A DNA stretch of 64,000 bases from Knoellia locipacati (lineage in GTDB: Bacteria; Actinomycetota; Actinomycetes; Actinomycetales; Dermatophilaceae): NCBI RefSeq assembly GCF_007992835.1, contig NZ_BKBA01000003.1, forward strand, positions 1 to 64,000, read 5' to 3'. The translations under genes were made by a program, and so were the position numbers. Shown piece after piece: positions 936-63,955 of this stretch. The notes below the pieces were generated by a model. It worked only from the letters and a program-made list of their open reading frames with translations. It was not told the DNA's origin and did no database searches. The first letter of the stretch is position 1. Every line of letters begins with the position of its first letter.

Positions 936-1598
936 ATGCTGCGAAGCCACCCTCCCCCGGTCATACTCGGCGCCATGTCTCTTCCCCACCGTCTCGACTT
1001 GGGCCGCCTCATTCTCGTGCCGGTCTTCGCAGCGCTTCTCGTCCTCAACGCGACCAAGCTGCTCGGTGCCGGCACTGAGACGCACCTCCTCGAGTCGGCC
1101 GGGACGGTGACAGCCTTGGCGTTCTACGGCGTGCTGGTCATCCTGTACATCCGACGGGACGCGGCGACGGACACGGATCGGCGCTGGGAACGATGGCTGG
1201 TCGCCGGCGTGGCAACCTTCTCCGGGTTTGCGATCCCACTCGTCGGTGCCGGCGGCACTGGGTCTGGCCTCGCCGCAGTGGGCACGGCCCTCATCGTCGT
1301 CGGTGTAGGCCTGTCGGTGTGGGCTCTGCTCCACCTCCGGACGAACATCAGCGTCGTGCCGCAGTCCCGAGGACTCGCCTCAGAGGGTCCGTACAGGTTC
1401 TTTCGCCACCCCCTGTACGTCTTCGAGTACATCAGCGCCATCGGTCTCGCCATCGTCAACGGTGGAGGCTGGGCCTGGGTCGTCGTCGCTATCATCGGTG
1501 TCCTTCAGATCCTGCGCGCCCGTTGGGAGGAGCAGCTGCTACGCGAACGTGTGCCCGGCTACGCGGCATACGCAGAGCGAACCCGAGGATTCTCGTGA
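936..1598 (+). CDS. isoprenylcysteine carboxyl methyltransferase family protein
   Basis: A polytopic membrane methyltransferase of the ICMT/PEMT type. Several hydrophobic segments are followed by the diagnostic motif GPYRFFRHPLY in the C-terminal half, which binds S-adenosylmethionine in this family, and by the usual tail (RARWEEQLLRERVPGYAAY). Bacterial members act on small lipids, quinones or steroids; the substrate here is unknown. The start may be ATG 936, 12 nt after a TAGTCT -10 box, or ATG 975, which removes an atypical Pro-rich N-terminus. It overlaps the next gene by 4 bp (GTGA), so the two are translationally coupled. Third codon positions hold more A/T than in the rest of the window. 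Confidence 0.8.
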   Translation: MLRSHPPPVILGAMSLPHRLDLGRLILVPVFAALLVLNATKLLGAGTETHLLESAGTVTALAFYGVLVILYIRRDAATDTDRRWERWLVAGVATFSGFAIPLVGAGGTGSGLAAVGTALIVVGVGLSVWALLHLRTNISVVPQSRGLASEGPYRFFRHPLYVFEYISAIGLAIVNGGGWAWVVVAIIGVLQILRARWEEQLLRERVPGYAAYAERTRGFS

Positions 1599-3073
1599 AG
1601 GCACGTTGGGACTGGGGCGTTCTGGCCGCCTGGATCACGGGCCTGGTCATCATCCGCGCTTCTCGGTTGGTCGAACGCGACCCGTACTGGCAGGCCAGGG
1701 ACGGGAGCGAGCGATGGGCGGGTATGCCCCTGTCGAGAGCGGACGCGTGGAGCTGGGCGCAGCCTTCCGGGACCTTCCGCCCGACGTCCCCGGCCTGGAA
1801 CACCGCTCTCGGACTCGGATACGACGCCCTGGGGTTCGCAGGAATCGCCGTCGTCGGCGCCGTGGGGCTTCTCGCGTACTTCGTTGTTGCCCTGGTTCTG
1901 GCGCGCTGGCTCGGCTCACGCCCCTTGCCCGCTCTCGTTGCGACTGCTGGGGTTGCCCTGCTGGCACTGCCGCTGCTCTCACCTCGCGCGACGACAGCGG
2001 TCGAGGCGCTACTCCTCACGACCATCGCCCTCGGGTACGCCTTGCTGGTGCGACCTCTTCGCACCGGATGGCGGCTGGTTGCCGTCGTGGCTCTTGGAGG
2101 GCTTGCCCTCGGCTGGGGCGGCGCGTGGCTGCACGTCTCGTGGAGCGTGACCGCTGTGGGCTTGGCCGTGGCCCTTCCTCTCGCCGCCCTCCTCGCTGGC
2201 GCTCCCCGCTGGCGTCTCACCCTCACGGCCGTCGCGGGACTCGGCATTGCGCTCGGCAGCACCTTCGGGCCGTACGGCTGGTCGGTGTGGCAACTCCTGA
2301 CCGAGATCAGCGCAGCGTCTGACGGGCAGGTCGTCGAGTGGATGTCGCCGCTCGCAGACGGACCTCGGACCAGATGGCTCCCGATCGCGATCGCTGTTCT
2401 CACACTCGCTCTTGCCTGCGTACTCCGAGTGGCAAGGCAGCGGCCCGGCGCCCCCGGCTCGCGAGAACGTGCTCGCTGGGCGCTGGAGGTCATCCTCCTG
2501 GGTGGGAGTCTCGCCGCGGCGCTCGCCGGATTCGTGGCCATTCGCTTCCTCGGCGTGGCTGCCCTCACCCTGCTTCCTGTCCTGGCCGCAGAGATATCGG
2601 TCAGCACCGCCAAGTGGCGGGCAAACCCCGATCGATCCGGCGCCCTCCGCAGTCGCCTCGAGGCCGCCTACTGGCGACCGATCCTCACCGGTGCGATCGT
2701 CATCCTCCTCCCCGTCGCTCTCGTTGCATCACACGATCCTGGTCGACCCGACCCTGAGGCCGAGATCATGGCGGACCTTCCCCACGGCTGCCGACTCTTC
2801 GCGACTGCAGACGCTGCAGGAGTGACGCTGCTTCTGCGCACGGACGTGAAGGTGTGGATCGACATGCGTACAGAGGTCTATGGGGCCGACGCCATCGCTG
2901 AGTCCACGCGCCGCTTGGGCGACCTTTCGGACGTGGCGCTACCGGAGGGAACGACGTGCGCGATCCTTCCCCGGGACACCAAGGGTGTTCGTTCGGATGG
3001 CTCACCCCAGGTGTGGAACCAGCTCAGGCCTGTCGGGCCGATGGCCGTGTGGCTCCCGGGGGCCGGGGCCTGA
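1595..3073 (+). CDS. polytopic membrane protein, possibly GT-C-like
   Basis: A 492-residue protein starting at GTG 1595, which overlaps the preceding stop. The first membrane segment (GVLAAWITGLVII) is followed by an external-looking loop with RDPYWQARDG and DAWSWAQPSGTF. Such a D/W-rich loop after the first helix is usual in GT-C glycosyltransferases and their actinobacterial relatives. About ten further hydrophobic segments follow, and then a soluble C-terminal domain of roughly 110 residues. It may handle a lipid-linked sugar, but no catalytic motif is firm. Coupling to the methyltransferase suggests a shared membrane substrate. Codon use is AT-richer than in neighbours, which hints at a different origin. 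Confidence 0.55.
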   Translation: MKARWDWGVLAAWITGLVIIRASRLVERDPYWQARDGSERWAGMPLSRADAWSWAQPSGTFRPTSPAWNTALGLGYDALGFAGIAVVGAVGLLAYFVVALVLARWLGSRPLPALVATAGVALLALPLLSPRATTAVEALLLTTIALGYALLVRPLRTGWRLVAVVALGGLALGWGGAWLHVSWSVTAVGLAVALPLAALLAGAPRWRLTLTAVAGLGIALGSTFGPYGWSVWQLLTEISAASDGQVVEWMSPLADGPRTRWLPIAIAVLTLALACVLRVARQRPGAPGSRERARWALEVILLGGSLAAALAGFVAIRFLGVAALTLLPVLAAEISVSTAKWRANPDRSGALRSRLEAAYWRPILTGAIVILLPVALVASHDPGRPDPEAEIMADLPHGCRLFATADAAGVTLLLRTDVKVWIDMRTEVYGADAIAESTRRLGDLSDVALPEGTTCAILPRDTKGVRSDGSPQVWNQLRPVGPMAVWLPGAGA

Positions 3074-3087
3074 AGGCCTGAGAACGC

Positions 3088-3123
3088 GGTATGCCGCCCG
3101 CTCGGGTGAGCGGACGGCATACC
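3088..3123. terminator. bidirectional terminator built from two GTATGCCG words
   Basis: GGTATGCCGCCCGCTC-gggt-GAGCGGACGGCATACC is a 16-bp stem with one mismatch and a 4-nt loop between two convergent genes. Each arm starts with the dispersed word GTATGCCG. There is no U-tract, as is usual for actinobacterial terminators. Confidence 0.85.
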
Positions 3124-3150
3124 GGGGTCGTGCCCTGGGTCTGAGACGTC

Positions 3151-6975: not shown

Positions 6976-6980
6976 CCCGT

Positions 6981-7541
6981 ATGCCGTCCGCCCGCGGAAC
7001 GCTGTCCTGGTCACCCGTCGTCGGGTCGCCAGACCTCGTCGCACCTCCCGTCGCCGCGGCCCTCACGGCCCCGGGAGCCACCGAGGGCGCCGCAGCGGGC
7101 GTCGCAGCGGCGCAGGTCGCGACCATCGACGCGACGCTCGCCGACACGGAGGCGTTCTGTGCGGCATACGACGTCGCGCCGGAGGCGAGCGCCAACTGCG
7201 TCGTCGTCGCCGGGAAGCGGGCCGGCGAGGTGACCTACGCCGCCGTCATGGTCCTGGCGACCGACCGCGCCGACATCAACGGCGTCGTCCGCCGTCACCT
7301 CGGCGTCCGCAAGATCTCGTTCGCGCCGCACGACGACGCGGTGTCGCTGACCGGCATGGAGTTCGGCGGGATCACGCCCATCGGGCTGCCCGACGGCTGG
7401 CCGGTGCTCGTCGATGCCGCCGTCGTCGCGGCCGGCGAGGTCGTCATCGGCAGCGGGCTGCGGTCGAGCAAGGTGCTCGTCGATGGCGCCGCGCTGGCGC
7501 AGCTGCCGACGGCCGAGGTCCTCGACCTCGCCCAGCACTGA
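6981..7541 (+). CDS. YbaK/EbsC-family aminoacyl-tRNA deacylase-like protein
   Basis: A 186-residue protein with the YbaK/ProX fold: Cys/Asn-rich strand NCVVVAGKRAGEVTYAAVMV, then ADINGVVRRHLGVRKISFA, and the pocket segment MEFGGITPIGLPDGWPVLVD. The family removes wrongly attached amino acids (for example Cys or Ala from tRNA-Pro) in trans. Residues needed for the exact specificity cannot be read from sequence alone. The proposed start ATG 6981 lies inside a copy of the 12-nt word GTATGCCGTCCG and has no clear ribosome binding site, so it may be read by coupling from DUF808. Confidence 0.8.
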   Translation: MPSARGTLSWSPVVGSPDLVAPPVAAALTAPGATEGAAAGVAAAQVATIDATLADTEAFCAAYDVAPEASANCVVVAGKRAGEVTYAAVMVLATDRADINGVVRRHLGVRKISFAPHDDAVSLTGMEFGGITPIGLPDGWPVLVDAAVVAAGEVVIGSGLRSSKVLVDGAALAQLPTAEVLDLAQH

Positions 7542-7565: not shown

Positions 7566-8747
7566 TCAGCTCGTCCGGTCGCGCAGCTCGGTGACGTGCC
7601 GTGAGACGGCGGGGTCCAGACCGAGCCCGAGCGCGAGGTAGGTCGCGGCGTAGTCGGTGAGCGCGATGAGCGACGCCAGCCGCTCGATGGGGTGCGCGCC
7701 GGTGGCTTCGACCTCCCAGACCTTGACCCCGGCCTCACGGGCCGACTCGGCGACCGCGTCGGCGAGCTGTGCCGGTGGCACCGCCGTGGGTGGGAGCGAG
7801 GAGGGCGGCGTGACGTCGGGGTTGTCGCGCAGGAGGAGCAGCCCCAGCTGCGGCGCCGGCGGACCGTCGAGGAACGGGTCGGCGAAGATGTCGCCTCCGC
7901 TCCCCCGCCCGGTGTCGCCCGCGCCGCTGAACGGGCCGTCGAAGCAGGCGACCACCTGCGCGGCCGCATCGGGAAGCGCACCCGAGGTGGCCGGCATACG
8001 CGCGGTGCGGGCGAGCATCGCGGCCGCGCGACCGGCGGCGACCCCGGTGAGGGCACCGTCGCCGAGGACGACGGGGACGGTCTCGGCCAGACCGACGGCG
8101 AGGACCTTCGCGGGGTTGACGAACGACTCCGACGAGGGGCGGCACTCCTCGGCCCGGCCGTCGAGGAGGTCGGCGACGCGTTCGAGCACCGCCTCGGGGC
8201 AGTCGATGAGACCCAGCCCGTCGGCCGCGAGCAGCACCGGGGTGAGCATCGACCAGAGCGCCGCGCGCGACGTGGGCACGTCGGTCGCGATGTCGACATG
8301 GACCCCTCGGCCTCGCGCGCACACGTCGGCCAGCGGCGAGTCCGGGGCCCCGACGGTGAGCAGCGAGGCACCACGCCGGGCAGCCTCGGCCGCGAGCGCC
8401 AGCGGGCCGGCGGCCCGGCCGGACTGCGACACCGCGATGACGAGGTCGAGCGGACCGATCCAGCCGGGCAGCGGAGCCTCGCGCCGGGTCGTCAGCGGGA
8501 CCGGGGACCCCGGCTCGGCGAGGACGTCGAGGACGTCGCACACGACGGCGGAGCCGCCGAGCGACGCGACGAGCACCGACCGTGGGCGGTCGCCGCCGGC
8601 GACCCGATCCACACCCGCCTCACGGGCGGCGACGATGGCCCGGCGCACCTGGGCACCGGACGTGGCGAGCGCGCGGAGCGAGCCACGACTGTCGAGGCGC
8701 TCGAGCGCGTCGGCCGAGTCGAGGACGTCCTCGTCGAGGTGCGGCAT
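7566..8747 (-). CDS. SIS-domain phosphosugar isomerase-like protein
   Basis: A 393-residue protein similar to bifunctional phosphoglucose/phosphomannose isomerases, with two SIS sugar-phosphate-binding lobes. Visible landmarks are SVLVASLGGSAVVCDVL (first SIS strand-loop), DLVIAVSQSGRAAGPLALAAEAARRGA (phosphate-binding Ser/Gly loop) and a C-terminal region ending LASLIALTDYAATYLAL, as in this family. Directly downstream of the Trm112-like gene and manB, in the same direction, it probably interconverts hexose 6-phosphates to supply mannose for GDP-mannose. The isomerase activity is inferred from context and fold. Confidence 0.8.
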   Translation of the reverse strand: MPHLDEDVLDSADALERLDSRGSLRALATSGAQVRRAIVAAREAGVDRVAGGDRPRSVLVASLGGSAVVCDVLDVLAEPGSPVPLTTRREAPLPGWIGPLDLVIAVSQSGRAAGPLALAAEAARRGASLLTVGAPDSPLADVCARGRGVHVDIATDVPTSRAALWSMLTPVLLAADGLGLIDCPEAVLERVADLLDGRAEECRPSSESFVNPAKVLAVGLAETVPVVLGDGALTGVAAGRAAAMLARTARMPATSGALPDAAAQVVACFDGPFSGAGDTGRGSGGDIFADPFLDGPPAPQLGLLLLRDNPDVTPPSSLPPTAVPPAQLADAVAESAREAGVKVWEVEATGAHPIERLASLIALTDYAATYLALGLGLDPAVSRHVTELRDRTS

Positions 8748-8963: not shown

Positions 8964-10411
8964 CAGCTGTCTCCTTGTGAAGTGCCACGTACGACGCTGA
9001 GGACATCGTCGCGTATCGCGGCCATCGTGTCCGCATCGGCTGCCTCGACGTTGAGCCGCAGCAGGGGTTCGGTGTTCGAGGCGCGCAGGTTGAGCCACCA
9101 CATCGGGTCGCCCGCGCCTCCCTCGTGGGTCAGGGTGAGCCCGTCGAGCTCGTCGACGGCGACGTCCTTGTCGCGCGCCCACTCGCGGACCCGGGCGGTG
9201 CTCGCGGCCGCGTCGTCGACGGTCGAGTTGATCTCGCCCGAGGCGGCGTATGCCGTCCAGTCGGCCATGAGCTCGCTCAGCGGTGCGTCCTCCTCACCGA
9301 GGGCCGCGAGGACGTGCATCGCGGCGAGCATGCCGGTGTCGGCGAACCAGAAGTCGCGGAAGTAGTAGTGGGCGCTGTGCTCGCCGCCGAACACGGCGTC
9401 GGCGCGTGCCATCTCGCCCTTGATGAACGAGTGCCCGACCCGGGTCCGGACGGCGCGGGCGCCGAGGCCCGCGATGACCTCGGGGACCTGCGCCGAGGTG
9501 ATGACGTTGTGGACGATGGCGACCTCGTGCGCGGGCGTGCCGGCCGCGACCTCGCGGGCGACCTCACGGGTGGCGATGAGGGCCGTGATGGCGCTGGGGC
9601 TCACGGGCTCGCCGCGCTCGTCGACGACGAAGCACCGGTCGGCGTCGCCGTCGAAGGCGAGGCCGAGGTCGGCTCCGTGCTCGACCACCGCGGCCTGGAG
9701 GTCACGCAGGTTCTCCGGCTCGAGCGGGTTCGCCTCGTGGTTGGGGAAGGTGCCGTCGAGCTCGAAGTAGAGCGGGACGACGGTGAGGGGCAGGGCGGGC
9801 AGGCCGGCGCCGGTCTCGAGGACCGCAGGGACGGTGTGGCCACCCATGCCGTTGCCGGCGTCGACGACGACCTTGAGGGGCCGGATGCCGGAGAGGTCGA
9901 CGAGCCCGCGCAGGAAGCCGGCGTAGTCGGCGAGGACGTCGCGCTCCGTGAGCGTGCCCTCCTCCTCGTGGCGCTGCTCGGCGGTGCCGTCGAGCAGCTC
10001 CTGGGCGAGGTCGCGGACCTCACCCAGGCCGGAGTCCTGGCCGACCGGGCGCGCGCCCCGTCGGCAGAGCTTGATGCCGTTGTATGCCGCGGGGTTGTGG
10101 CTCGCGGTGAACATCGCCCCCGCGAGGTCGAGGTGGCCGCTGGCGAAGTAGAGACCGTCGGTGCTCGCGAGCCCGATGAGGGTGACGTCGACACCCCGGC
10201 TCGTCACCCCTGCGGCGAACGCCCGTGAGAGCTCGGGCGAGGTGGCCCGCATGTCGTGGCCGATGACGCACCCCTTGCCGCCCTCGCGGGTGATGACGAC
10301 CTCGGCGAACGCGGCGCCGAGCGCCCACGCGACGTCGACGTCGAGCTGCTCCGGGACGAGCCCTCGGACGTCGTAGGCCTTGACGAAGTCGGCGAGCTGG
10401 TGGGGAGGCAC
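8963..10411 (-). CDS. manB: phosphomannomutase / phosphoglucomutase
   Basis: A 482-residue alpha-D-phosphohexomutase that converts mannose 6-phosphate to mannose 1-phosphate (some members also act on glucose phosphates), feeding GDP-mannose for glycolipids and glycoproteins. Landmarks in order: N-terminal FVKAYDVRGLVP; the phosphoserine loop TASHNPAAYNGIK; the metal-binding loop DGDADRCFV; the sugar-binding GGEHSAHYYF; and the phosphate-binding RASNTEPLLRLNVE at the C-terminus. All are intact. The GTG start at 10411 lies 6 nt after a TAGGGT -10 box, so the message is probably leaderless. Upstream gene of a three-gene operon with the Trm112 and SIS genes. Confidence 0.93.
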   Translation of the reverse strand: MPPHQLADFVKAYDVRGLVPEQLDVDVAWALGAAFAEVVITREGGKGCVIGHDMRATSPELSRAFAAGVTSRGVDVTLIGLASTDGLYFASGHLDLAGAMFTASHNPAAYNGIKLCRRGARPVGQDSGLGEVRDLAQELLDGTAEQRHEEEGTLTERDVLADYAGFLRGLVDLSGIRPLKVVVDAGNGMGGHTVPAVLETGAGLPALPLTVVPLYFELDGTFPNHEANPLEPENLRDLQAAVVEHGADLGLAFDGDADRCFVVDERGEPVSPSAITALIATREVAREVAAGTPAHEVAIVHNVITSAQVPEVIAGLGARAVRTRVGHSFIKGEMARADAVFGGEHSAHYYFRDFWFADTGMLAAMHVLAALGEEDAPLSELMADWTAYAASGEINSTVDDAAASTARVREWARDKDVAVDELDGLTLTHEGGAGDPMWWLNLRASNTEPLLRLNVEAADADTMAAIRDDVLSVVRGTSQGDS

Positions 10412-10465: not shown

Positions 10466-12829
<2,364 letters not shown>

Positions 12830-13376: not shown

Positions 13377-13802
13377 GTGGCTCCCGTCGACCCCCGAAAC
13401 CCCGTGTCCGCGCCTCGTCGCGACCGTCGCGGGCGGGGCGCCAGGGGTCCGCTGGCGTGGCCGCCCGTGCCCGCGATGCGCTCGCGGCGCGAGACCTTCG
13501 ACGACGTCGTCATCGACGTCGCCGAGCGCGCCCGCGAGTACCTCGGGAACCGGTATGCCGCGGTCGAGTTCGCCGTCGAGGAGGTCCCGCCCACCGATCC
13601 CGCGCCGTGGGAGGAGCAGGCGGCCCCCCTCGGGCGCCTCGTCCCCGTCGGTGGTGCCGTGGGGCACCGGATCCTCGTCTACCGACGCCCGGTCGAGACC
13701 CGCGCGCGCGACGCGGCCGAGGTCTCGGTCATCGTGCGAGAGGTCGTCGCCGAGCAGGTGGCGGCGCTCCTCGGCGTGCCACCCTCCGAGATCGACCTCT
13801 AG
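13377..13802 (+). CDS. metallopeptidase-family (zincin-like) protein without the zinc motif
   Basis: A 141-residue protein that aligns with the actinobacterial partner of DUF3499 (mycobacterial Rv3259-like; I recall a HEVLVAQV-type helix there). Core: RETFDDVVIDVAERAREYL, AVEFAVEEVPP, HRILVYRRPVETRARD, then REVVAEQVAALLGVPPSEIDL. True members of this small zincin family have HExxH in the last helix. Here that position reads REVVAEQV, so zinc catalysis looks impossible and a structural or binding role is more likely. The first 35 residues are Arg/Pro-rich and may be a disordered tail. The GTG start is supported by a TAGTCT box 6 nt upstream. Confidence 0.75.
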   Translation: MAPVDPRNPVSAPRRDRRGRGARGPLAWPPVPAMRSRRETFDDVVIDVAERAREYLGNRYAAVEFAVEEVPPTDPAPWEEQAAPLGRLVPVGGAVGHRILVYRRPVETRARDAAEVSVIVREVVAEQVAALLGVPPSEIDL

Positions 13803-13815: not shown

Positions 13816-15294
13816 TCAGGAGGCGGGGTGCGCCCGGCTCACTGTGGACGTCACGGCGCTCTCGGCGAGAGGTGACACCGACACGAGCGGCTGCTCCCGC
13901 CCCACCATCGACCCCACGCCGGACCGGATCTCGCCGGTGCCGGACGTCCGCCGGACCCACACCGACTCGGCGGCGCCGAGGTCGAGCGCCGTCGACGTGT
14001 CCTGGGCGAGGTCGATGCTGCGCGTGGTCCACGTCCCGCCCGTCCGCCAGGTCACGGCGACCCGCGACGGACCGGCGGTCGAGACGACGCTCAGCATCCG
14101 TCGCCGCGGCTCGTCGGCCGTGGCGAAGGCGGCGCCGAGAAGTCCCGTCGCCCCGTCGGTCGACGGCGCCCAGACGAAGTCGCCGCGCTCCTCGCCCTTG
14201 CGCCAGGAGGCGAACAGCGAGGCGACGATCGGGACGTCGGAGGTGAGCTCGACGGCATACATGTTCTGGGTCAGTCCGGTGACCGACAGCTCACCGGTGG
14301 ACCGCCCGGGGACGCGGGCCACTCCCCCGCCGGGAAGCGGGGCGGCGCCGTCCTTGCCGATGATGCGCGCGCTCACGACGGCCTGCTGCGCGTCGGGGAC
14401 CGCGATCCGGATGGAGCCGGACGACGAGATCATGGCGGCCGGGATGACCTGACGGGTGGAGGGCGCCGCGGTCGGCACGGTGGTCTCGGCGCCGGCGGGG
14501 ACCGAGCCGTCGAGCCAGATGTCGCTGATGACGGCGCGGACCGACCCGCCGCTGGCGCGCACCCGCACCGCGGGCGACTCCTCGGCGCCGGTGACCGCAT
14601 CGACGAGGAGGGCGACCCGGCCGTGGGCGGGGACGACGGTGCTGCCGGTCGGTGACACGAGCGGGCCCTTGAGACCGAAGGCCTGCACGTCGACGGTGAC
14701 CTCGTTGGCCCCCGGGTTGGTGAGCACGAGGCGCTCCTGACGACCGGCGGCACCGCCACCGGCGAGGAGCCACAGGTCCGAGCCGGGGCCGGCGCAGGGC
14801 ACGGTGGCGAGGCCGCGGATCTCGTCACGGCTCACCGACCACTCCTGGGTCGCGGCGAGGCCGGGCGCCATGGTGCCGGCGGCGACGACGTCGCTCGCTC
14901 GGCCGTCGAGGGTGGGTGCCGTCGTCGTGGCGCCCCGGTCGCTCGAGGACGCGGCGGTGCTCGAGCCGGAGCGCACGACGAGGTCGCCGTCGCCGGTGGG
15001 CTCCACCGGGCCGAGGACGTCCTCGGGTGCGGCGGCGGCGCCGATCCTGGCGGGCACCTCGATGTCGTCGACGTCACCGACGCCGCTGAGCTCGGGGCCG
15101 GGGCAGGAGACACTGCTGGACGACACCGGGGCTGCGGCGACGGCCGTGCCGGCTGCGCCGGACGTGGCGCCTGCCCGGGCCGGGCCCGCTCCGGCGTCGC
15201 TCATCGGCGAGAGGGTGGCCAGGGCCACGAGACCCGTACCCGCGGCGGCGGTGAGGACGAGGCGGCCGGGGCCGACGAGGCGGGCGGGGGTCAT
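13816..15294 (-). CDS. DUF5719 secreted/membrane-anchored protein
   Basis: A 492-residue protein starting at ATG 15294, which overlaps the stop of the upstream glycosyltransferase (ATGA). A signal or anchor segment (LVLTAAAGTGLVALATL) is followed by a low-complexity Ala/Ser-rich stretch to about residue 150 and then a beta-rich domain: LVLTNPGANEVTVDVQAFGLKG, GRVALLVDAVTGAEESPAVRV. This is the pattern of DUF5719, found beside WhiB-linked glycosyltransferases in actinobacteria. It is probably exposed at the cell surface and acts with the glycosyltransferase. Function unknown. Confidence 0.82.
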   Translation of the reverse strand: MTPARLVGPGRLVLTAAAGTGLVALATLSPMSDAGAGPARAGATSGAAGTAVAAAPVSSSSVSCPGPELSGVGDVDDIEVPARIGAAAAPEDVLGPVEPTGDGDLVVRSGSSTAASSSDRGATTTAPTLDGRASDVVAAGTMAPGLAATQEWSVSRDEIRGLATVPCAGPGSDLWLLAGGGAAGRQERLVLTNPGANEVTVDVQAFGLKGPLVSPTGSTVVPAHGRVALLVDAVTGAEESPAVRVRASGGSVRAVISDIWLDGSVPAGAETTVPTAAPSTRQVIPAAMISSSGSIRIAVPDAQQAVVSARIIGKDGAAPLPGGGVARVPGRSTGELSVTGLTQNMYAVELTSDVPIVASLFASWRKGEERGDFVWAPSTDGATGLLGAAFATADEPRRRMLSVVSTAGPSRVAVTWRTGGTWTTRSIDLAQDTSTALDLGAAESVWVRRTSGTGEIRSGVGSMVGREQPLVSVSPLAESAVTSTVSRAHPAS

Positions 15295-18818: not shown

Positions 18819-19787
18819 ATGCGAATCACGGCCCTCGCGGGCGGCGTCGGCGGTGCCCGGTTCCTGAGGGGCCTCATGGCCCATCTCGACGTCGTGGCAC
18901 CGCAATCCGAGCTCACCGTCATCGCCAACACCGGTGACGACATCAGCCTCTACGGCCTGCGGGTCTGCCCCGACATCGACACGTTGCTCTACACCCTCGG
19001 CGGCGGCATCAACGAGGAGCAGGGCTGGGGGCGGGCCGACGAGTCGACCCGGGTCCAAGGCGAGCTCGCGGCCTACGGCGCGGTCCCCCAGTGGTTCACG
19101 CTCGGCGACCTCGACCTCGGCACCCACATCGTGCGGTCGCAGTGGCTGGCGCAGGGGCAGACCGCGACCGAGGTGACGGCCCGCCTGGCCTCCCGGTGGG
19201 GGCTGCCCGACCGCGGCATCACGCTGCTCCCGATGACGGACACCCCGGTCGAGACGCACGTCGTGCTCGACGAGGGCGACGAGCAGCGCGCCGTGCACTT
19301 CCAGGAGTGGTGGGTGCGCCTGCGGGCCGAGGTGCCGGCGTCGAGGTTCGTCGTGGCCGGGCTCGACCGCGCTGCCGCCGCACCGGGCGTCCTCGAGGCG
19401 CTGCGGTCGGCGGACGTCATCGTGCTGCCGCCCTCGAACCCGGTGGTCTCGATCGGCATCATCCTCGGCGTCCCCGGCGTGCGTGACGCCCTGCGCGGCT
19501 CCAGGGCACCCGTGGTCGGGGTGTCGCCGCTCATCTCGGGCCGTCCGGTGCGCGGGCACGCCGACGCGTGCCTGTCGGCAATCGGCGTCGAGTCGTCCGC
19601 CGCCGCGGTGGCCGGGCTGTATGCCGACTTCCTCGACGGGTGGCTCGTCGACCCCGCCGACGCCGACGTGCGCGTCCGCGGCGTCGAGACCTCGGTCCAC
19701 CCCGAGGCCCTGCTCATGACCGACGTCGACGCCGCCGCGCGGATGGCCGAGAGCCTCCTGGCGCTGGCCGAGCGGGTCCGCCGGTGA
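18819..19787 (+). CDS. fbiA: phospho-lactate/enolpyruvate transferase of F420 synthesis
   Basis: FbiA/CofD (322 aa) joins the activated phospho-acid (PEP- or lactyl-guanosine diphosphate) to the deazaflavin Fo, making dehydro-F420-0 or F420-0. Landmarks: N-terminal ALAGGVGGARFLRGL, the Fo/metal site VIANTGDDISLYGLRVCPDIDTLLYTL, FTLGDLDLGTHIVR and, towards the C-terminus, VIVLPPSNPVVSIG and PVVGVSPLISGRPVRG. Length and motifs are complete. It is coupled to fbiB by a 4-bp overlap. Confidence 0.95.
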   Translation: MRITALAGGVGGARFLRGLMAHLDVVAPQSELTVIANTGDDISLYGLRVCPDIDTLLYTLGGGINEEQGWGRADESTRVQGELAAYGAVPQWFTLGDLDLGTHIVRSQWLAQGQTATEVTARLASRWGLPDRGITLLPMTDTPVETHVVLDEGDEQRAVHFQEWWVRLRAEVPASRFVVAGLDRAAAAPGVLEALRSADVIVLPPSNPVVSIGIILGVPGVRDALRGSRAPVVGVSPLISGRPVRGHADACLSAIGVESSAAAVAGLYADFLDGWLVDPADADVRVRGVETSVHPEALLMTDVDAAARMAESLLALAERVRR

Positions 19788-30312: not shown

Positions 30313-30351
30313 GCTTCCGACACCCGGACGCACGTATGCCGTCCGCCCACA

Positions 30352-42365: not shown

Positions 42366-43151
42366 ATGGACAAGGTCGTCTCCTCTGCATCCGCAGCCCT
42401 CGAGGACGTCCGCGACGGTGCCAGCCTGGCCGTCGGCGGGTTCGGGCTCTGCGGGATCCCCAGCGTTCTCATCGCCGAGCTGCACGCCCGGGGGGTGCGT
42501 GACCTCGAGGTCTTCTCGAACAACTGCGGCGTCGACGACTGGGGCCTGGGCATCCTCCTCGGCGCCAAGCAGATCCGGCGGATGGTCTCCTCGTACGTCG
42601 GCGAGAACAAGGAGTTCGCCCGCCAGTACCTCGAGGGCGAGCTCGAGGTCGAGCTCACCCCGCAGGGCACCCTCGCCGAGCGCCTGCGCGCCGGTGGTGC
42701 CGGGATCGCGGCGTTCTTCACGCCGACCGGTGTCGGCAGCCAGGTCGCCGATGGCGGACTTCCCTGGCGGTATGCCGCGGACGGCAGTGTCGCGGTCGCC
42801 TCACCTCCCAAGGAGACGCGCACCTTCGGCCTCGGCGGCGAGGAGCGGACCTTCGTGCTGGAGGAGGGCATCGCCGCAGACTTCGGCCTCGTGCGCGCCT
42901 GGAAGGGCGACCGCCACGGCAACCTCGTCTTCAACAAGTCCTCGCGCAACTTCAACCCGCTGTGCGCCATGTCGGGCCGGGTGACGATCGCCGAGGTCGA
43001 GGAGCTCGTCGAGCCCGGCGAGCTCGACCCCGACGAGATCCACCTGCCCGGCATCTACGTCCAGCGCGTCGTGCCGCTCACCCCCGAGCAGGCCGCCGAC
43101 AAGCGGATCGAGAAGCGCACCGTGACCACCCAGACCCCCAAGGAGGCCTGA
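42366..43151 (+). CDS. scoA: 3-oxoacid CoA-transferase subunit A
   Basis: A 261-residue alpha subunit of succinyl-CoA:3-ketoacid CoA-transferase. It moves CoA between succinyl-CoA and acetoacetate, for growth on ketone bodies or branched amino acids. Motifs: [23 protein letters not shown], the CoA-binding segment [30 protein letters not shown], then [24 protein letters not shown]. Subunit B follows 3 bp after the stop. The gene pair ends at a strong terminator. Confidence 0.94.
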
Positions 43152-50143: not shown

Positions 50144-51454
50144 TCAGCCCGCGGCGGGCTCGGTGGCTGCCACGCCCACGGTGCGGTGCGTGACCCCGGG
50201 CCAGTCGGCGGCCTGCGTGAGGCGGCGACCGTCGACGAGCGTCTTGAGACCGGGCAGGTCCGCGGGGGTGAGCTCGCGGTACTCGGCGTGGTCGGCCTGG
50301 ATGACGGCCGCGTCGACCGGCTCACCGAGGTGGTAGGCCGTGAAGCCCAGCGACTCGAGCTCCTCGTCGCTGTAGAGCGGGTCGTGCACGAGGACGTCGG
50401 CGCCCAGGCCCTTGAGCGAGGTCACGGTGTCGAAGACGCCCGAGAACGCGGTCTCCTTGACGCCACCGCGGTAGGCGGCGCCGAGGACGACGACCTTGGC
50501 ACCGGCGAGGTCGCCGTGGGCGCCCTCGAGGAGGTTGGTCGTGTATGCCGGCATCGCAGCGTTCGCGGCCCGCGCGGCGCTGACGACGGTCGCGGCCGGG
50601 TCGGTGTGCAGGTAGAGGCGCGGGTAGACCGGGATGCAGTGCCCACCGACGGCGATGCCGGGACGGTGGATGTGGCTGTAGGGCTGGCTGTTGCTCGCGT
50701 CGATGACCTGGAAGACGTCGATGCCCTGCGTCGCCGCGAACTGCGCGAACTGGTTGGCCAGGCCGATGTTGACGTCGCGGTAGGTCGTCTCGGCGAGCTT
50801 GGCGAGCTCGGAGGCCTCGGCCGCGCCGAGGTCCCAGACGCCGTTGCCGCGCTCGAGGTCGGGGCGCTCGTTGAAGTCGAGGACCGCCTCGTAGAACTCG
50901 CGGGCCTTGTCGGCGCCGGCCTGCGAGAGACCGCCGATGAGCTTGGGGTACTTGCGCAGGTCCTCGAAGACGCGGCCGGTGAGGACGCGCTCGGGGCTGA
51001 AGACGAGGTGGAAGTCCTTGCCCTCGACGAGGCCGGAGCCCTCCTCGATCATCGGCTTCCAGCGGTTGCGGGTCGTGCCGACGGGCAGCGTGGTCTCGTA
51101 GGAGACGAGCGTGCCGGGCGTGAGGTGCTTGGAGAGCTCGCGGGTGGCGCTGTCCATCCAGCCGAAGTCGGGCTTGCCGTCGCCGTCGACGAAGAGCGGG
51201 ACGACGAGGACGATCGCGTCGGCGCCGGGGACGGCGTCGGCGTAGTCGGTGGTCGCGCGCAGGCGGCCGGCGGGCACGAGCTCGGTCAGCTTCTCCTGGA
51301 GGTGTGCCTCACCGGGGAAGGGCTCGCGCGCCTCGTTGACCGAGTCCACGGTCGCTTGGTTGACATCGACGCCCACGACGTCGTGTCCCTTGCTCGCGAA
51401 CTGCACCGCGAGGGGCAGCCCGATCTTGCCGAGGGCAACAACGCAGATCTTCAC
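50144..51454 (-). CDS. UDP-sugar 6-dehydrogenase (UDP-N-acetylhexosaminuronate type)
   Basis: A 436-residue nucleotide-sugar dehydrogenase that oxidises C6 of UDP-GlcNAc or UDP-ManNAc twice with NAD. Motifs: NAD-binding CVVALGKIGLPLAVQFASKG; PERVLTGRVFEDLRKYPKLIGG; KLAETTYRDVNIGLANQFA; and the catalytic cysteine in GIAVGGHCIPVYPRLY. The group includes WbpA, WecC and TviB. With the epimerase, dehydrogenase, aminotransferase and acyltransferase encoded nearby it fits the WbpA step. The GTG start at 51454 is chosen because a -10 TATGAT and a GGA site lie just upstream; the longer reading has an unrelated N-terminus. Confidence 0.92.
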   Translation of the reverse strand: MKICVVALGKIGLPLAVQFASKGHDVVGVDVNQATVDSVNEAREPFPGEAHLQEKLTELVPAGRLRATTDYADAVPGADAIVLVVPLFVDGDGKPDFGWMDSATRELSKHLTPGTLVSYETTLPVGTTRNRWKPMIEEGSGLVEGKDFHLVFSPERVLTGRVFEDLRKYPKLIGGLSQAGADKAREFYEAVLDFNERPDLERGNGVWDLGAAEASELAKLAETTYRDVNIGLANQFAQFAATQGIDVFQVIDASNSQPYSHIHRPGIAVGGHCIPVYPRLYLHTDPAATVVSAARAANAAMPAYTTNLLEGAHGDLAGAKVVVLGAAYRGGVKETAFSGVFDTVTSLKGLGADVLVHDPLYSDEELESLGFTAYHLGEPVDAAVIQADHAEYRELTPADLPGLKTLVDGRRLTQAADWPGVTHRTVGVAATEPAAG

Positions 51455-54157: not shown

Positions 54158-54904
54158 TCAGCCGCGCACGCGCCGCGCCGCCGCGCGTGCCAGGCGCCGC
54201 GACCCGGCCACTGGATCCTCGCGGAGCACCGCCACGGCACGCTTGACCTTGACCGCCGGACCCTGGGCCGCCCTCGCCGTGGCCTCGCGGGCGCTCTTGC
54301 GGGCCGCCGCGAGCTCCTGCTCGAGGGCCTGCCGCTGCGACTTCGCGCTGGTCTGGAGGTCGTCGAGCCGCACCCGCAGCAGGCGGGCCTCCTCGTCGGA
54401 GCCCCGCAGACGCTCGGTGAGCTGGTAGACGGACGCGCGCAGGGCGACGCCCTCGACGACCCACTCGTTGGCGAGCCGCAGCGCGGCGCGCTCGTCCGTG
54501 GCGACGGGCGTCTGCGAGAGGTATGCCGTGACCGGCACCTCCGCGTCGCGCGTCACGCTGAGCACGGTGCGGGCACGCCGGTGGGCGACCCCCTGGGCTC
54601 GCACGACGCGCAGACCGTGCTCCGTGGCGGCCGCGAGGAGAGGTCCGACGGGCAGGGCCGAGGGCTCCGCGACGAGCGCGAGCACGCCAATGCCGCCGTC
54701 GCCGATGGCGTCGGCCAGACGGCCGAGCGCGGCGACCTCGTCACCGAGCTGGGCGTGGGCGACGACGACCGAGCGGCCGTCGGCCTCGGTCCCGGCCTCC
54801 TCGGGCACGGCACCGCGCAGCGCCTCGGAGTCGTCGAGCAGGCTGACGCCGGCCGTGTCGCCCAGGCCCGTCCGCGTGGTCTGGACGTAGTCGGTCAGAG
54901 ACAT
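54158..54904 (-). CDS. coiled-coil protein of unknown function
   Basis: A 248-residue protein. The first 130 residues have a Rossmann-like rhythm (SVVVAHAQLGDEVAALGRLADAIGDGGIGVLALVAEPSALPVGPLLAAATEHGLRVV broken by loops). From about residue 145 a long charged helix follows (ASVYQLTERLRGSDEEARLLRVRL to LEQELAAARKSAREATARAA). The C-terminus is very basic. No catalytic motif. It starts immediately before the methyltransferase stop (cat and tca adjacent), so the two genes are cotranscribed, and the protein probably assists the methyltransferase or a glycosyltransferase. Confidence 0.6.
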   Translation of the reverse strand: MSLTDYVQTTRTGLGDTAGVSLLDDSEALRGAVPEEAGTEADGRSVVVAHAQLGDEVAALGRLADAIGDGGIGVLALVAEPSALPVGPLLAAATEHGLRVVRAQGVAHRRARTVLSVTRDAEVPVTAYLSQTPVATDERAALRLANEWVVEGVALRASVYQLTERLRGSDEEARLLRVRLDDLQTSAKSQRQALEQELAAARKSAREATARAAQGPAVKVKRAVAVLREDPVAGSRRLARAAARRVRG

Positions 54905-55585
54905 TCAGGACACCCTCACAGCCAAGTGCATTCCGGACGGATCATCGTGGAAGTCGTTGCGGATGAAGTCGAGGACGACGAAGCCGCAGGACTCCAGGAC
55001 CTCACGGTAGCGGCCGTTCGCCCGGGTCTTCTGGTAGTCCCTCCAGACCTTGTCCTCGTCGCGGTCGTGGTCGACGAGCCCGATCCGGCCGCCGAGCCGG
55101 ACGAGGCTCGCGAGGTGGCGCACGCTCGCCTCCCACTCCACGTCGTCCATGAGGTGGTAGAGCACGTCGATGCTCACGATCGCGTCGTAGAGGTAGGCAG
55201 GCGACCAGTCGGTGAGCGCCGACACGTGGTAGCTCTGCCGCGGTCCGGCGAGGCTGCGGCACTCGGCGATCGCGTGGGGGCTGGTGTCGATGCCGTCGAC
55301 GCGGTGGCCGTAGGCCGAGAGCACCCGCGTGTAGTAGCCCTTGCCGCACCCCGCGTCGAGCACCCGGCGCGCCGCGCCCGGGTCGGTCCCCGGCCCGAGG
55401 GCCGTCACGAGACGGGCGGCGCGCACGGCATACAGCATCGCGTTGGTCGGCTCGTCGAAGCCGATGTTGCCCCCGGAGGCCAGGGCGCTCGCACTGGCGT
55501 GTCGCTTGTCCCAGTAGGCGCGCGACTGGGCGGCGGACAGGCCCTGCGGTGACGCCAGGGCCCCGGCCGTCGACTGCTCTGACAA
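54905..55585 (-). CDS. class I SAM-dependent methyltransferase
   Basis: A 226-residue methyltransferase: VLDAGCGKGYYTRVLSAYGHRVDGIDTSPHAIAEC is motif I and the acidic loop, then YDAIVSIDVLYHLMDD and LVRLGGRIGLVDHDRDEDKVWRDYQKTRANGRY. It starts with TTG 55585 behind a strong GGAGG 5 nt upstream. It should methylate a sugar or capping residue in the surface polymer; the substrate is inference. Divergent from wecB. Confidence 0.83.
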   Translation of the reverse strand: MSEQSTAGALASPQGLSAAQSRAYWDKRHASASALASGGNIGFDEPTNAMLYAVRAARLVTALGPGTDPGAARRVLDAGCGKGYYTRVLSAYGHRVDGIDTSPHAIAECRSLAGPRQSYHVSALTDWSPAYLYDAIVSIDVLYHLMDDVEWEASVRHLASLVRLGGRIGLVDHDRDEDKVWRDYQKTRANGRYREVLESCGFVVLDFIRNDFHDDPSGMHLAVRVS

Positions 55586-56749: not shown

Positions 56750-56785
56750 GACGGGGGCGGACGGCATACGCCGGTCCTGCCCGAC

Positions 56786-56835: not shown

Positions 56836-57822
56836 TCAGAGCGTGACGGTCTGACCGGTCCTCGCCGACTCGATGCAGGCCTCGGCGACGCGCACCGTCT
56901 GCAGGCCCTGGGTCATCGTGACGATGTCGGCGTCCTTGCCGAGCACCGCGTCGCGGAACTGCTCGTGCTCGACGCGCAGCGGCTCCGGCTTGGAGATCGC
57001 GTAGCGGACGACGTCGCCCTCGGAGACGCCGCGGAAGTTCGCGATGTCGTCCCAGGTCGTCTGCACCTCGCCGTTGGCGTAGAAGGTGAGGTCGGCGGTG
57101 AGGGTGTCGGCGACGTAGGCGCCCTTGGTCCCCGTGATGATCGTGACGCGCTCCTTGAGCGGCGACAGCCAGTTGACGAGGTGGTTGGTCACGACGCCGT
57201 TGGACAGCTGACCGGTCACGGCGACGAGGTCCTCGAACTCACGACCGCTCTTGTATGCCGTGCGCGCGGCGACCGCGGTGAAGGTCTGCTGCGTGACCCA
57301 GGCCGTGAGGTCGATGTCGTGCGTGCCGAGGTCCTTGACGACGCCGACGTCGGCGATGCGTGCCGGGAACGGGCCCTGGCGTCGGGTGCTCACCTGGTAG
57401 ACGTCACCGAGGTCGCCGGCCTCGAGGCGGCGGCGCGCCTCCTGCAGGGCCGGGTTGTAGCGCTCGATGTGGCCCACGGCGCCGACGAGACCCTTGGCCT
57501 CGAACGCCTCGGCGACCTTGGTGGCGGCCGGGGTGTCCTGGGCGAGGGGCTTCTCGATGATCGCGTGGACGCCCGCCTCGGCGAGGGCCAGACCGACCTG
57601 CTCGTGGTAGATCGTCGGGACGGCGACCATGCAGTAGTCGATGCCCTGCTCGATGAGCTGCTCGACGCTCTCGAGGACGGGACGACCACCGGCGATGCCG
57701 TGGACGTCGCCGCCCGGGTCGGCCACCGCGACGAGGTCGACGCCCGGCAGGCTCGCGAGCACGCGGCCGTGGTGGCGGCCCATCATGCCGAGGCCGATGA
57801 GGCCGGCGCGCAGGTTGGCCAT
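56836..57822 (-). CDS. Gfo/Idh/MocA oxidoreductase (WbpB-like)
   Basis: A 328-residue NAD(P)-dependent sugar dehydrogenase. N-terminal NAD site LRAGLIGLGMMGRHHGRVL, then CMVAVPTIYHEQVGLALAEAGVHAIIEKPLAQ, GHIERYNPALQEARRRL and DVGVVKDLGTHDIDLTAW with the family Lys and His residues. In the WbpA-WbpB-WbpE-WbpD route it oxidises C3 of UDP-GlcNAcA. ATG 57822 overlaps the aminotransferase stop by one base (TGATG), so the two are made together. Confidence 0.88.
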   Translation of the reverse strand: MANLRAGLIGLGMMGRHHGRVLASLPGVDLVAVADPGGDVHGIAGGRPVLESVEQLIEQGIDYCMVAVPTIYHEQVGLALAEAGVHAIIEKPLAQDTPAATKVAEAFEAKGLVGAVGHIERYNPALQEARRRLEAGDLGDVYQVSTRRQGPFPARIADVGVVKDLGTHDIDLTAWVTQQTFTAVAARTAYKSGREFEDLVAVTGQLSNGVVTNHLVNWLSPLKERVTIITGTKGAYVADTLTADLTFYANGEVQTTWDDIANFRGVSEGDVVRYAISKPEPLRVEHEQFRDAVLGKDADIVTMTQGLQTVRVAEACIESARTGQTVTL

Positions 57823-62859: not shown

Positions 62860-63955
62860 TCGCGGGCCGTCCGGCCAGCGCGCCGAGCGCCCTCATCGCG
62901 TCGTCGTAGCCGCCGGTCTCGAGGGCGACCTCGCGCCACTGGCGGGCGCGGTCCCGGTGTGCCTCGACGAGGGCCGGGTCCGCCGACCACTCGCGCAGCA
63001 CCCGGCCGCACTCTGCGCCTGACCGGTCACCCGCCGGCACCACGGCTCCCGCGCCGGCGTGGTCGACGAGCTGTCGCTGCCGCGGCAGGTCCGACACGAC
63101 GACCGCGAGCCCGCTCCCGAGGTACTCGTAGAGCTTGCTCGGCACGGCGTCGTGGAACGCCGGCGTGTCCTCGAGCAGCGCGAGGCCGCACCACGCGCCG
63201 GCGGCGAGGCGCCAGGCCCGCTCGGGCGGCTGGCGCCCGTGGAAGGTCACCCGGCCGTCGAGGCCGCGGCGTCGCAGCTCGTCGTCGGTGACGGAGCCCG
63301 CGTCGGGCTCGGCGACGGGACCGACGACGTCGAGCCTCCAGCCGGGCGCCGCCTCGAGGGCGTCGAGCATCGCGGCGAGCCCGCGGGACCCGCGCACGTC
63401 ACCGATGTAGATGGCGCGCGGCTCGGCGTCGAGCCCGCACGGCTCGGGCAGCATCGTGAGGTCTGGGACGTTGCGCACGACGAGGCGTCCGGGCACGTCG
63501 TGCGGCGGGATGTGGGCGTCGGCGACGATGACGAGGTCGGCGCGCCGGGCCGCCGCCGTCGCCGCGCGGGCGAGCCGGGTCGCGACGACCCCCTTGGGGC
63601 CGCGGGCCCAGGGCCGGTCGGCCAGCAGCGCCTCGTAGTCCTCGTGGATGTCGGCGACGACCTTGCGGCTGCGACCCCGGGTCACGGCGAGGCACGCCAG
63701 GAGCGAGTCCGGGTCGAGGGCGACGAGGACACGCCCACGGGCGCGGACGGCATACCGGAGGGCCAGGGCCGCGCGGCGCGCGAACGAGCCACGCGCGGTC
63801 GCGGTGACGTGGTCGACGCGCGGGGCGTCGGCGGCATCGCCGAGCCCGAGGACCTCGACGCTCAGCCCGACCCGGCGCGCGGCGGCCGCGAGGCGGTGCA
63901 GGCGCGCGTCGGCGACGTCGTGTCCGCTCGTGACGAAGCTGACGTCGACCGGCAC
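62852..63955 (-). CDS. family 4 glycosyltransferase
   Basis: A 367-residue GT-B enzyme: VDVSFVTSGHDVADARLHRLAAAARRVG at the start, VVADIHEDYEALL and ADLVIVADAHIPPHDV in the acceptor domain, AIYIGDVRGSRGLAAMLDALEAAPGW and VPSKLYEYLGSGLAVVVSDLPRQR in the donor domain. The start is GTG 63955, 4 nt after the stop of an upstream partial gene; GTG 63991 would overlap that gene by 32 nt. Confidence 0.83.
   Translation of the reverse strand: MPVDVSFVTSGHDVADARLHRLAAAARRVGLSVEVLGLGDAADAPRVDHVTATARGSFARRAALALRYAVRARGRVLVALDPDSLLACLAVTRGRSRKVVADIHEDYEALLADRPWARGPKGVVATRLARAATAAARRADLVIVADAHIPPHDVPGRLVVRNVPDLTMLPEPCGLDAEPRAIYIGDVRGSRGLAAMLDALEAAPGWRLDVVGPVAEPDAGSVTDDELRRRGLDGRVTFHGRQPPERAWRLAAGAWCGLALLEDTPAFHDAVPSKLYEYLGSGLAVVVSDLPRQRQLVDHAGAGAVVPAGDRSGAECGRVLREWSADPALVEAHRDRARQWREVALETGGYDDAMRALGALAGRPAIS

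What the first reader, a model, noticed from the sequence alone, without database searches (positions are those of the whole stretch)
1564..63755. A dispersed DNA word, GTATGCCG, about 20-fold over-represented
I count 46 exact copies (24 forward, 22 reverse) in 64 kb, roughly one per 1.4 kb. With an assumed G+C near 71%, chance predicts about two on both strands together. Copies occur in coding DNA as Ala-Tyr, Tyr-Ala or Met-Pro codons, on either strand, and also between genes, so selection at DNA level rather than protein level is likely. Balanced orientation argues against a polar signal such as KOPS. Plausible roles are a DNA-uptake word (as in Neisseria and Haemophilus), a methylation or restriction target, or a nucleoid-protein site. 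No such word is known to me in actinobacteria.
Basis: partly seen in the sequence, partly recalled or inferred. Interest (0 to 1): 0.9.

Follow-up and report, generated by a model that had tools for sequence, protein, structure and literature searches.

The report
DNA-uptake-like word in soil actinobacteria
A soil actinobacterium (Knoellia) carries an eight-letter DNA word about 2,500 times, in a pattern that matches the "self" tags some Gram-negative bacteria use to choose which DNA to take up, and related genera carry altered versions of the tag.

Summary
GTATGCCG occurs 46 times in the window and 2,535 times in the 3.59 Mb genome, against 99 for the reversed word. Synonymous-codon shuffling leaves about 19 of 256 genic copies, so selection acts on the DNA. 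The genus is Knoellia. The word is abundant (872-4,724 copies) in 61 of 119 sampled family genomes and in none of 229 sampled genomes from other families of the order. Relatives carry one-letter dialects (GGATGCCG, GTATGCGG), and Janibacter-type genomes an unrelated word, CGAAGGGG. Close inverted pairs form terminator-like hairpins; sites are conserved between species. This matches Neisseria/Haemophilus uptake sequences. The genome has comEA, comEC and two Tad/Flp clusters, as does Micrococcus luteus, whose tad loci are required for transformation. New feature: same-strand words avoid each other within about 1 kb, opposite-strand words do not, suggesting each word acts in one direction. Best reading: an uptake-word system with dialects, which I did not find reported in Gram-positives. 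The reader protein is unknown, the machinery does not track the word, and uptake is untested. Main rival: a Chi-like recombination signal, not read by RecBCD.

The parts
1564..1571 (-). word copy, Ala-Tyr codons of a gene at 1017-1598 (PEMT family)
3083..3128 (.). terminator-like hairpin made of two inverted word copies, centred 46 bp past the stop codon of the S-adenosylhomocysteine hydrolase gene (3151-4584, -)
   Evidence: folding energy -35.3 kcal/mol
3089..3096 (+). word copy, left arm of the hairpin
3115..3122 (-). word copy, right arm of the hairpin
6979..6986 (+). word copy overlapping the predicted start codon of a gene at 6981
7162..7169 (-). word copy, coding
7992..7999 (-). word copy, coding (Met-Pro)
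9248..9255 (+). word copy, coding
10082..10089 (+). word copy, coding
10866..10873 (-). word copy, coding
13553..13560 (+). word copy, coding
14253..14260 (-). word copy, coding
15930..15937 (+). word copy, coding
18078..18085 (-). word copy, coding (Met-Pro)
19619..19626 (+). word copy, coding
20181..20188 (+). word copy, coding (Met-Pro)
22549..22556 (-). word copy, coding
23435..23442 (-). word copy, coding
23634..23641 (-). word copy, coding (Met-Pro)
23835..23842 (+). word copy, coding
26098..26105 (+). word copy, coding
26949..26956 (-). word copy, coding
30334..30341 (+). word copy, intergenic
31014..31021 (-). word copy, intergenic (tail-to-tail)
31288..31295 (+). word copy, coding
31762..31769 (+). 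word copy, intergenic
32625..32632 (+). word copy, coding
33422..33429 (-). word copy, intergenic (tail-to-tail)
34284..34291 (-). word copy, coding (Met-Pro)
34706..34713 (+). word copy overlapping the predicted start codon of a gene at 34708 (Zn_protease family)
36256..36263 (-). word copy, intergenic
37105..37112 (+). word copy, coding
39144..39151 (+). word copy, coding (a rare frame)
39979..39986 (-). word copy, coding
40614..40621 (+). word copy, coding
42248..42255 (-). word copy, intergenic
42770..42777 (+). word copy, coding
44420..44427 (-). word copy, coding
44850..44857 (+). word copy, coding
47622..47629 (+). word copy, coding
49658..49665 (-). word copy, coding
50543..50550 (+). 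word copy, coding
54521..54528 (+). word copy, coding
55426..55433 (-). word copy, coding
56762..56769 (-). word copy, intergenic (tail-to-tail)
57253..57260 (+). word copy, coding
63748..63755 (-). word copy, coding
36..391 (-). two Flp/Fap pilin genes (36-206, 221-391), candidate parts of a DNA-uptake pilus; link to the word inferred only
   Evidence: Flp_Fap, E 2.4e-13 and 5e-13

Best explanation
GTATGCCG, with almost never an A on either side and T favoured after it, is the self-recognition word of a DNA-uptake (natural transformation) system in Knoellia and related actinobacteria. Shown here: the word is kept at DNA level in thousands of copies, its sites are conserved between species, it is reused in terminator-like hairpins, it is spaced evenly on each strand, and it comes in lineage dialects. 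Also shown: the genome has comEA, comEC and Tad/Flp pilus genes. Inferred: a cell-surface protein on or near the Flp pilus binds the word on free DNA, ComEA and ComEC then import one strand, and words accumulate because word-bearing alleles are taken up and recombined more often. Inferred from the strand-specific spacing: a word serves mainly the DNA on one side of it or one strand, so a second word on the same strand within about 1 kb adds little, while one on the other strand is useful.
For: Scale: 2,535 copies vs 99 reversed. DNA-level selection: 256 genic copies vs 19.2 after synonymous shuffle; 130 of 182 aligned word sites identical in seven Knoellia relatives vs 24-38% of other 8-mers; GCA codons kept in 50 of 65 word cases vs 78 of 346 others. 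Terminator use: of adjacent words closer than 60 bp, 0 direct, 13 convergent, 7 divergent in 458,688 bp; in the enlarged set of 532,894 bp there are 21 such inverted pairs, 14 convergent and 7 divergent, most folding word against word; 15 lie outside genes, and 12 of these 15 are centred 23-57 bp past a stop codon. These pairs hold 42 of 359 words, close to the about 10% quoted for known uptake words (PMC1939737, passages). Word density per kb: 2.54 tail-to-tail, 1.95 tandem, 0.90 head-to-head, 0.57 coding; a tail-to-tail excess is described for Neisseria uptake-word hairpins (PMC1852404, passages). Dialects: GGATGCCG 3,619-4,480 copies in five genomes and 2,195 and 2,099 in two more that keep about 1,200 GTATGCCG; GTATGCGG 511-1,204 in four genomes of one genus; CGAAGGGG 1,813-3,180 in seven genomes of two genera, with 14 close inverted and 0 direct adjacent pairs among 92 in 118 kb of one of them. 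Repeatedly changed distribution: at least 13 state changes on a 62-row ComEC tree when two weakly supported words are not counted (15 when they are). Machinery: comEA and comEC, two Tad clusters, Flp pilins in the window; in M. luteus the genes of both tad loci are required for transformation, and comEA and comEC are present (PMC4322843, passages). Even spacing: variance/mean per 10 kb 0.57 (lower P 0.006), below all 238 control 8-mers (minimum 0.62); per strand 0.35 and 0.41.
Against: No natural transformation was tested, and I found no report of it in this family (several of these lists were capped). ComEC is in 115 of 119 family genomes and T2SSE-type pilus ATPases in 118 of 119, word or no word, so the machinery does not track the word. 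No reader protein was found: ComEA and the Tad genes compared showed nothing that separates carriers from non-carriers. Classical type IV pilins, the class of the Neisseria reader, were not detected in this genome. In H. influenzae the orientation of the word has no effect on uptake (PMC1939737, passages), so strand-specific spacing is not a known property of uptake words. The Janibacter word does not show it clearly (42 same, 47 opposite). In the GGATGCCG dialect 3 of 13 close pairs are direct, and the G047 variant GTATGCC had no close inverted pair among 49 neighbours.
Confidence: 0.72

Rival explanations
1. A Chi-like recombination signal: a strand-polar word that tells a DNA-end-processing enzyme (AdnAB in actinobacteria) to stop degrading and start recombination.
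For: Chi words are short, over-represented and act from one side only (recalled), which would explain why same-strand copies avoid each other within about 1 kb. Chi words also differ between lineages (recalled).
Against: Chi in E. coli is biased along replication (recalled), whereas these words alternate strands. Loss in many relatives and one-letter switching inside a genus are odd for a repair signal. Terminator hairpins are a known habit of uptake words, not of Chi (recalled). AdnAB was not searched for.
Confidence: 0.13
2. A chromosome-organisation word (nucleoid protein site, HIP1-like repeat, or KOPS-like pointer).
For: Genome-wide, evenly spaced, in coding and non-coding DNA.
Against: KOPS would run one way locally (recalled); neighbours are 95 same against 226 opposite. 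HIP1 is a palindrome (recalled); this word is not. Relatives in the same family lack it or use an unrelated word.
Confidence: 0.08
3. A modification target: a DNA methylase or a defence system marks self DNA at the word, perhaps including methylation-dependent uptake as reported for Campylobacter (recalled).
For: Non-palindromic words are typical of some modification systems (recalled).
Against: Modification sites are not usually 20-fold enriched or built into terminators (recalled). No methylation data were available and no modification gene was tested for co-distribution.
Confidence: 0.05
4. A by-product of codon or dipeptide usage, or of a mobile repeat.
For: 211 of 256 genic copies fall in two frames.
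Against: Synonymous shuffling removes over 90% of genic copies; flanks beyond about 8-12 bp are not shared; copies also lie between genes at 2.6 times the coding density.
Confidence: 0.01

Closest known systems
DNA uptake sequence (DUS) and its dialects, Neisseriaceae (PMC3630211; passages read)
   Same: Short non-palindromic word, very abundant, coding and intergenic; inverted pairs associated with terminators; several dialects within one family.
   Different: Found here in Gram-positive actinobacteria; type IV pilins, the class of the DUS reader ComP (recalled), were not detected in this genome. Uptake untested. Neisseria AT-DUS shares the letters ATGCCGT (recalled), but the experimentally essential DUS core CTG is not in this word, so I treat the likeness as chance. 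Strand-specific spacing was not mentioned in the passages I read.
Uptake signal sequence (USS), Haemophilus and other Pasteurellaceae (PMC1852404, PMC7811141, PMC1939737; passages read)
   Same: Spacing of about 1 kb; even spacing reported by Karlin and colleagues as cited in PMC1939737, though that paper calls the spacing less even than a chromosome-compaction role would need; inverted pairs as terminators.
   Different: USS orientation has no effect on uptake; here same-strand copies avoid each other within about 1 kb and opposite-strand copies do not.
Micrococcus luteus Flp/Tad-pilus transformation (PMC4322843; passages read)
   Same: comEA, comEC and two Tad clusters in a high-GC actinobacterium.
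   Different: The term 'uptake sequence' does not occur in that paper's main text. I did not test the M. luteus genome for a word.
Chi recombination hotspots (recalled)
   Same: Over-represented, one-sided word.
   Different: RecC not found in Knoellia; strands alternate; absent in many relatives; terminator use.
HIP1 of cyanobacteria (recalled)
   Same: Very abundant octamer.
   Different: HIP1 is palindromic and, as far as I recall, forms no terminators or dialects of this kind.

Membership tests
DNA uptake words (DUS/USS class) | short non-palindromic word, hundreds to thousands of copies genome-wide | tested here: met
   2,535 vs 99 reversed
DNA uptake words (DUS/USS class) | both strands, no local polarity | tested here: met
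   1,266/1,269; neighbours mostly on opposite strands
DNA uptake words (DUS/USS class) | close inverted pairs forming terminator-like hairpins | tested here: met
   21 inverted, 0 direct pairs under 60 bp in 532,894 bp; termination itself not measured
DNA uptake words (DUS/USS class) | selected at DNA level, intergenic excess | tested here: met
DNA uptake words (DUS/USS class) | lineage dialects | tested here: met
DNA uptake words (DUS/USS class) | host carries genes of an uptake machine | tested here: met
   comEA/comEC, Tad clusters; but also in non-carriers
DNA uptake words (DUS/USS class) | host is naturally transformable | not testable with these tools
   needs an experiment
DNA uptake words (DUS/USS class) | the word raises uptake or transformation | not testable with these tools
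   needs an experiment
Neisseria DUS-ComP system proper | reader is a type IV minor pilin | tested here: not met
   PF07963 in 3 of 119 family genomes, not in this one; divergent pilins could be missed
Chi (RecBCD type) | RecBCD present | tested here: not met
   RecC (PF04257) not found in 5 of 5 Knoellia scanned
Chi (AdnAB type) | enzyme responds to the word | not testable with these tools
   needs biochemistry; AdnAB genes not searched
KOPS | local strand polarity | tested here: not met
   95 same vs 226 opposite neighbours
HIP1-like palindrome | palindromic core | tested here: not met
   GTATGCCG is not its own reverse complement (sequence)
Restriction or modification target | methylated word or cognate methylase | not tested
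   no methylation data; no modification gene searched

The most novel reading that the evidence does not exclude
Actinobacteria of this family run a strand-polar uptake system: the word's orientation decides which strand or flank of incoming DNA is imported through a Tad-pilus/ComEA/ComEC machine, and each lineage's word dialect, including an unrelated word in Janibacter, acts as a mating barrier. This would be the first uptake-word system in Gram-positives, read by a protein unrelated to ComP.
Probability: 0.45. Interest if true: 0.94.

Novelty: new variant of a known kind. Interest (0 to 1): 0.87.

Why it matters
Uptake words are established only in two Gram-negative families (recalled; PMC7811141's summary names these two), and why they exist is an old argument. 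A third, independent case in soil actinobacteria, with 61 abundant carriers of one word in a sample of 119 genomes plus several dialects and many genomes without any detected word, would give replicated natural experiments on how such words arise, switch and die. The strand-specific spacing is a new quantitative clue: it suggests that the unit of selection is one strand or one flank about 1 kb long, which can be tested directly. Practically, adding the right word to donor DNA might make hard-to-engineer actinobacteria such as phosphate-removing Phycicoccus and Tetrasphaera (roles recalled) transformable.

Tried and rejected
Rejected: codon or dipeptide artefact; mobile repeat (no shared flanks); KOPS; RecBCD-type Chi; word confined to Knoellia or general in the order. 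One-mismatch words looked depleted, but their expectations are inflated by the word itself, so I draw nothing from that.

Led nowhere: a gene that separates carriers from non-carriers. ComEC is in 115 of 119 genomes. The strongest ATPase class, that of the C2 Tad cluster (E about 1e-64), is not the best hit in rich carriers such as G092 and G003, so that cluster does not track the word. The second Tad cluster was compared in 21 genomes and is shared by carriers and non-carriers (the script did not find tadA in L193 and L195, and its gene calls miss some short genes). ComEA aligned from 36 of 37 loci shows nothing diagnostic to the eye. Twenty-kb samples gave no comparable word in G001, G009, G045, G010, G013, G023, G069, G083, G088 (five of these pooled to 40-100 kb) or in G002, G006, G008, G014, G019, G028, G040, G041, G049, G057; weak ones could be missed, and the other non-carriers were not sampled. 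GTACGCC-type words in G024 and G081 are only 4-6-fold enriched and I leave them as possible. In one search the first control set of 117 8-mers included words overlapping GTATGCCG or itself; one search repeats it with 238 non-overlapping 8-mers. One search counted the two weak words as states (15 changes; 10 for word/none); one search recounts without them (13 and 8).

Literature: searches for actinobacterial uptake words found none. Listings seen: 0 of 0, 25 of 47, 20 of 643, 12 of 12, 1 of 1, 15 of 25, 7 of 7, 10 of 10, 10 of 954 and 10 of 1,317; in the last two nothing shown was relevant. Most subscription papers and all bioRxiv preprints are not held. Papers of which I saw passages: PMC4322843, PMC1939737, PMC7811141, PMC3630211, PMC1852404; none was read whole, the rest only in listings.
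Full report
Observation. GTATGCCG occurs 46 times in the window, 24 forward and 22 reverse, against 0.92 in dinucleotide shuffles. It is the most over-represented 8-mer by third-order Markov, 46 against 2.0. The genome (3,587,375 bp, 19 contigs; window = contig 3, 1-64000) has 2,535 copies against 99 for the same letters reversed. In 458,688 bp of it, 315 copies stand against 14.2 expected, and the flanks give A in only 1% of cases before and 2% after the word, with T in 55% after it.

It is DNA-level. I called genes with a simple script on 532,894 bp (470 genes, 88.5% coding). Of 359 words, 267 are coding and 92 intergenic, 0.57 and 1.50 per kb. Shuffling synonymous codons within genes gives 19.2 copies (sd 4.0, maximum 28 in 100 runs) against 256. 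Against seven Knoellia relatives at 80-86% identity in aligned parts, 130 of 182 aligned word sites are identical, while other 8-mers are identical in 24-38%; 39 words stand only in a relative at an aligned place, so sites also turn over. Ala codon GCA is kept in 50 of 65 cases inside the word and 78 of 346 outside; Tyr codon TAT in 36 of 42 and 26 of 40 (p 8e-17 and 0.04; the seven comparisons share ancestry, so these p values are optimistic).

Terminator use. Among adjacent words under 60 bp apart in 458,688 bp, none are direct, 13 convergent and 7 divergent. In 532,894 bp there are 21 such inverted pairs, holding 42 of 359 words. Most fold word against word; 15 lie outside genes, and 12 of the 15 are centred 23-57 bp past a stop codon. 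Words are densest in tail-to-tail gaps, 2.54 per kb against 0.90 head-to-head. The window's pair at 3089-3122 is one of these. Neisseria uptake-sequence hairpins show the same preference for tail-to-tail gaps (PMC1852404, passages). That the hairpins end transcription is inferred.

Who has it. The window's genus, shared with G111, is therefore Knoellia; the species is not identified. In 119 genomes sampled from the family, 61 carry 872-4,724 copies and 58 carry 7-404. In 229 genomes of other families of the order, the most is 177. Of the 35 best-matching named loci around ComEC (L096-L130), which I took as the family without checking the unnamed bins, 24 carry 7 or more copies, among them Knoellia, Phycicoccus, Pedococcus, Intrasporangium, Flexivirga, Humibacillus, Terrabacter and Terracoccus; the other 45 loci (880 kb) hold 10 copies in all, reversed control 7.

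Dialects. GGATGCCG reaches 3,619-4,480 copies in five genomes (G016, G026, G064, G103, G118) and 2,195 and 2,099 in G044 and G079, which still have 1,217 and 1,189 GTATGCCG: a switch caught inside one genus. GTATGCGG has 511-1,204 copies in the four sampled genomes of genus g20, 6-11 times the reversed control; five others reach 364-476, of which only G104 exceeds its control clearly. CGAAGGGG has 1,813-3,180 copies in the seven sampled genomes of Janibacter's genus and genus g38, and at most 396 elsewhere; among 92 adjacent pairs in 118 kb of J. melonis, 14 are close and inverted and none close and direct; with a g38 locus added and all pairs counted there is one close direct pair. For GGATGCCG, 10 close pairs are inverted and 3 direct of 168. 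GGTATGCC with C or G after it (G047; no close inverted pair among 49) and GAATGCCG (one metagenome bin) are further variants from smaller samples. On a ComEC tree of 62 rows (quick method, 18 of 59 inner branches weak) the word state changes at least 13 times, 8 for word against none, without two weakly supported words, and GGATGCCG sits in three separate places. ComEC is not a proven species tree, and some 'no word' labels rest on 20-kb samples.

Spacing and strand, a feature I did not expect. Words per 10 kb vary less than chance, variance/mean 0.57 (lower P 0.006), and per strand 0.35 and 0.41. Neighbours at least 60 bp apart are on opposite strands 226 times and on the same strand 95 times; 238 non-overlapping control 8-mers of similar frequency gave z between -4.8 and 2.5, the word 7.3. 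Pair correlation shows why: same-strand pairs reach 0.46, 0.28, 0.21, 0.53 and 0.70 of expectation at 60-250, 250-500, 500-750, 750-1000 and 1000-1500 bp, and 1.06 at 2-3 kb; opposite-strand pairs stay near 1 beyond 250 bp. With hairpin members removed, same-strand pairs under 1 kb are 33 against 68.9 (sd 5.9) when orientations are shuffled on fixed positions, minimum 48 of 5,000. In 32 loci of other carriers, 64 against 108.8 (sd 7.1), minimum 85. It also holds inside single genes, 17 same and 54 opposite. The GGATGCCG dialect shows it, 56 and 111, with a weaker short-range dip (0.60-0.95 up to 1 kb); the Janibacter word shows little of it, 42 and 47. In 61 abundant carriers, forward and reverse totals are closer than random strands would give (sum 41.3 for 61 expected, lower P 0.025).

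Machinery. The genome has comEA (SLBB and helix-hairpin-helix) next to comEC, and two Tad clusters plus a further ATPase fragment; two Flp pilins open the window. The second cluster (tadZ-A-B-C-flp-tadE-tadF) is shared by carriers and non-carriers. In M. luteus, an actinobacterium, the genes of both tad loci are required for transformation, and comEA and comEC are present (PMC4322843, passages). Classical type IV pilins were not detected. Nothing tested tracks the word across genomes.

Reading. The count, DNA-level selection, terminator hairpins, tail-to-tail bias, spacing and lineage dialects are properties of uptake sequences in Neisseriaceae and Pasteurellaceae (PMC3630211, PMC1852404, PMC1939737, passages). 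I know no other class of word with all of them. I therefore commit to an uptake word read by an unknown surface protein. The strand exclusion suggests one-sided action: if import starts at the word and runs one way, or one strand enters, a second same-strand word within one import length is redundant, whereas an opposite-strand word serves the other flank. This is inference. A Chi-like signal would also be one-sided and is the main rival. RecC was not found in Knoellia and is not positively linked to the word (16 of 61 abundant carriers against 20 of 42 genomes with none of the four words in abundance; my tally; test). Its actinobacterial counterpart AdnAB was not tested.

Limits. Literature claims rest on the searches listed, in an open-access library only.

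Noticed in passing
window 36-391 (-): Two tandem Flp/Fap pilin genes at the very start of contig 3, while contig 2 ends inside a Tad cluster; the two contig ends may adjoin in the chromosome.
   Followed up: partly
L033-L036, L063, L189 (Janibacter melonis, G037): An unrelated abundant word CGAAGGGG(G) with terminator-like inverted pairs; ATCGCGAT is also enriched there (24 vs 2.6).
   Followed up: partly
L142 (Nocardioides sp. CER19) and L174 (actinobacterial bin): AGGGCAAG is the top 8-mer in both (7 vs 0.4 and 10 vs 0.3); other actinobacteria may have words of their own.
   Followed up: no
L158 (Sinosporangium album): GTACGGCA 12 vs 0.9 in 22 kb.
   Followed up: no
G001, Nostocoides sp. Soil756: GGATGCCG 1,336 copies against 310 reversed, in a genome without a strong word and next to a GGATGCCG user (G103) on the ComEC tree: perhaps a decaying dialect.
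   Followed up: no
L076:8238-19001: Longest word-free gap in the genome sample, at least 10.8 kb (it runs to the end of the stretch) at lower GC, covers a Tad cluster; possibly acquired recently.
   Followed up: no
window 6979 and 34706: Two words overlap predicted start codons (GTATGCCGTCC, protein start Met-Pro-Ser).
   Followed up: no
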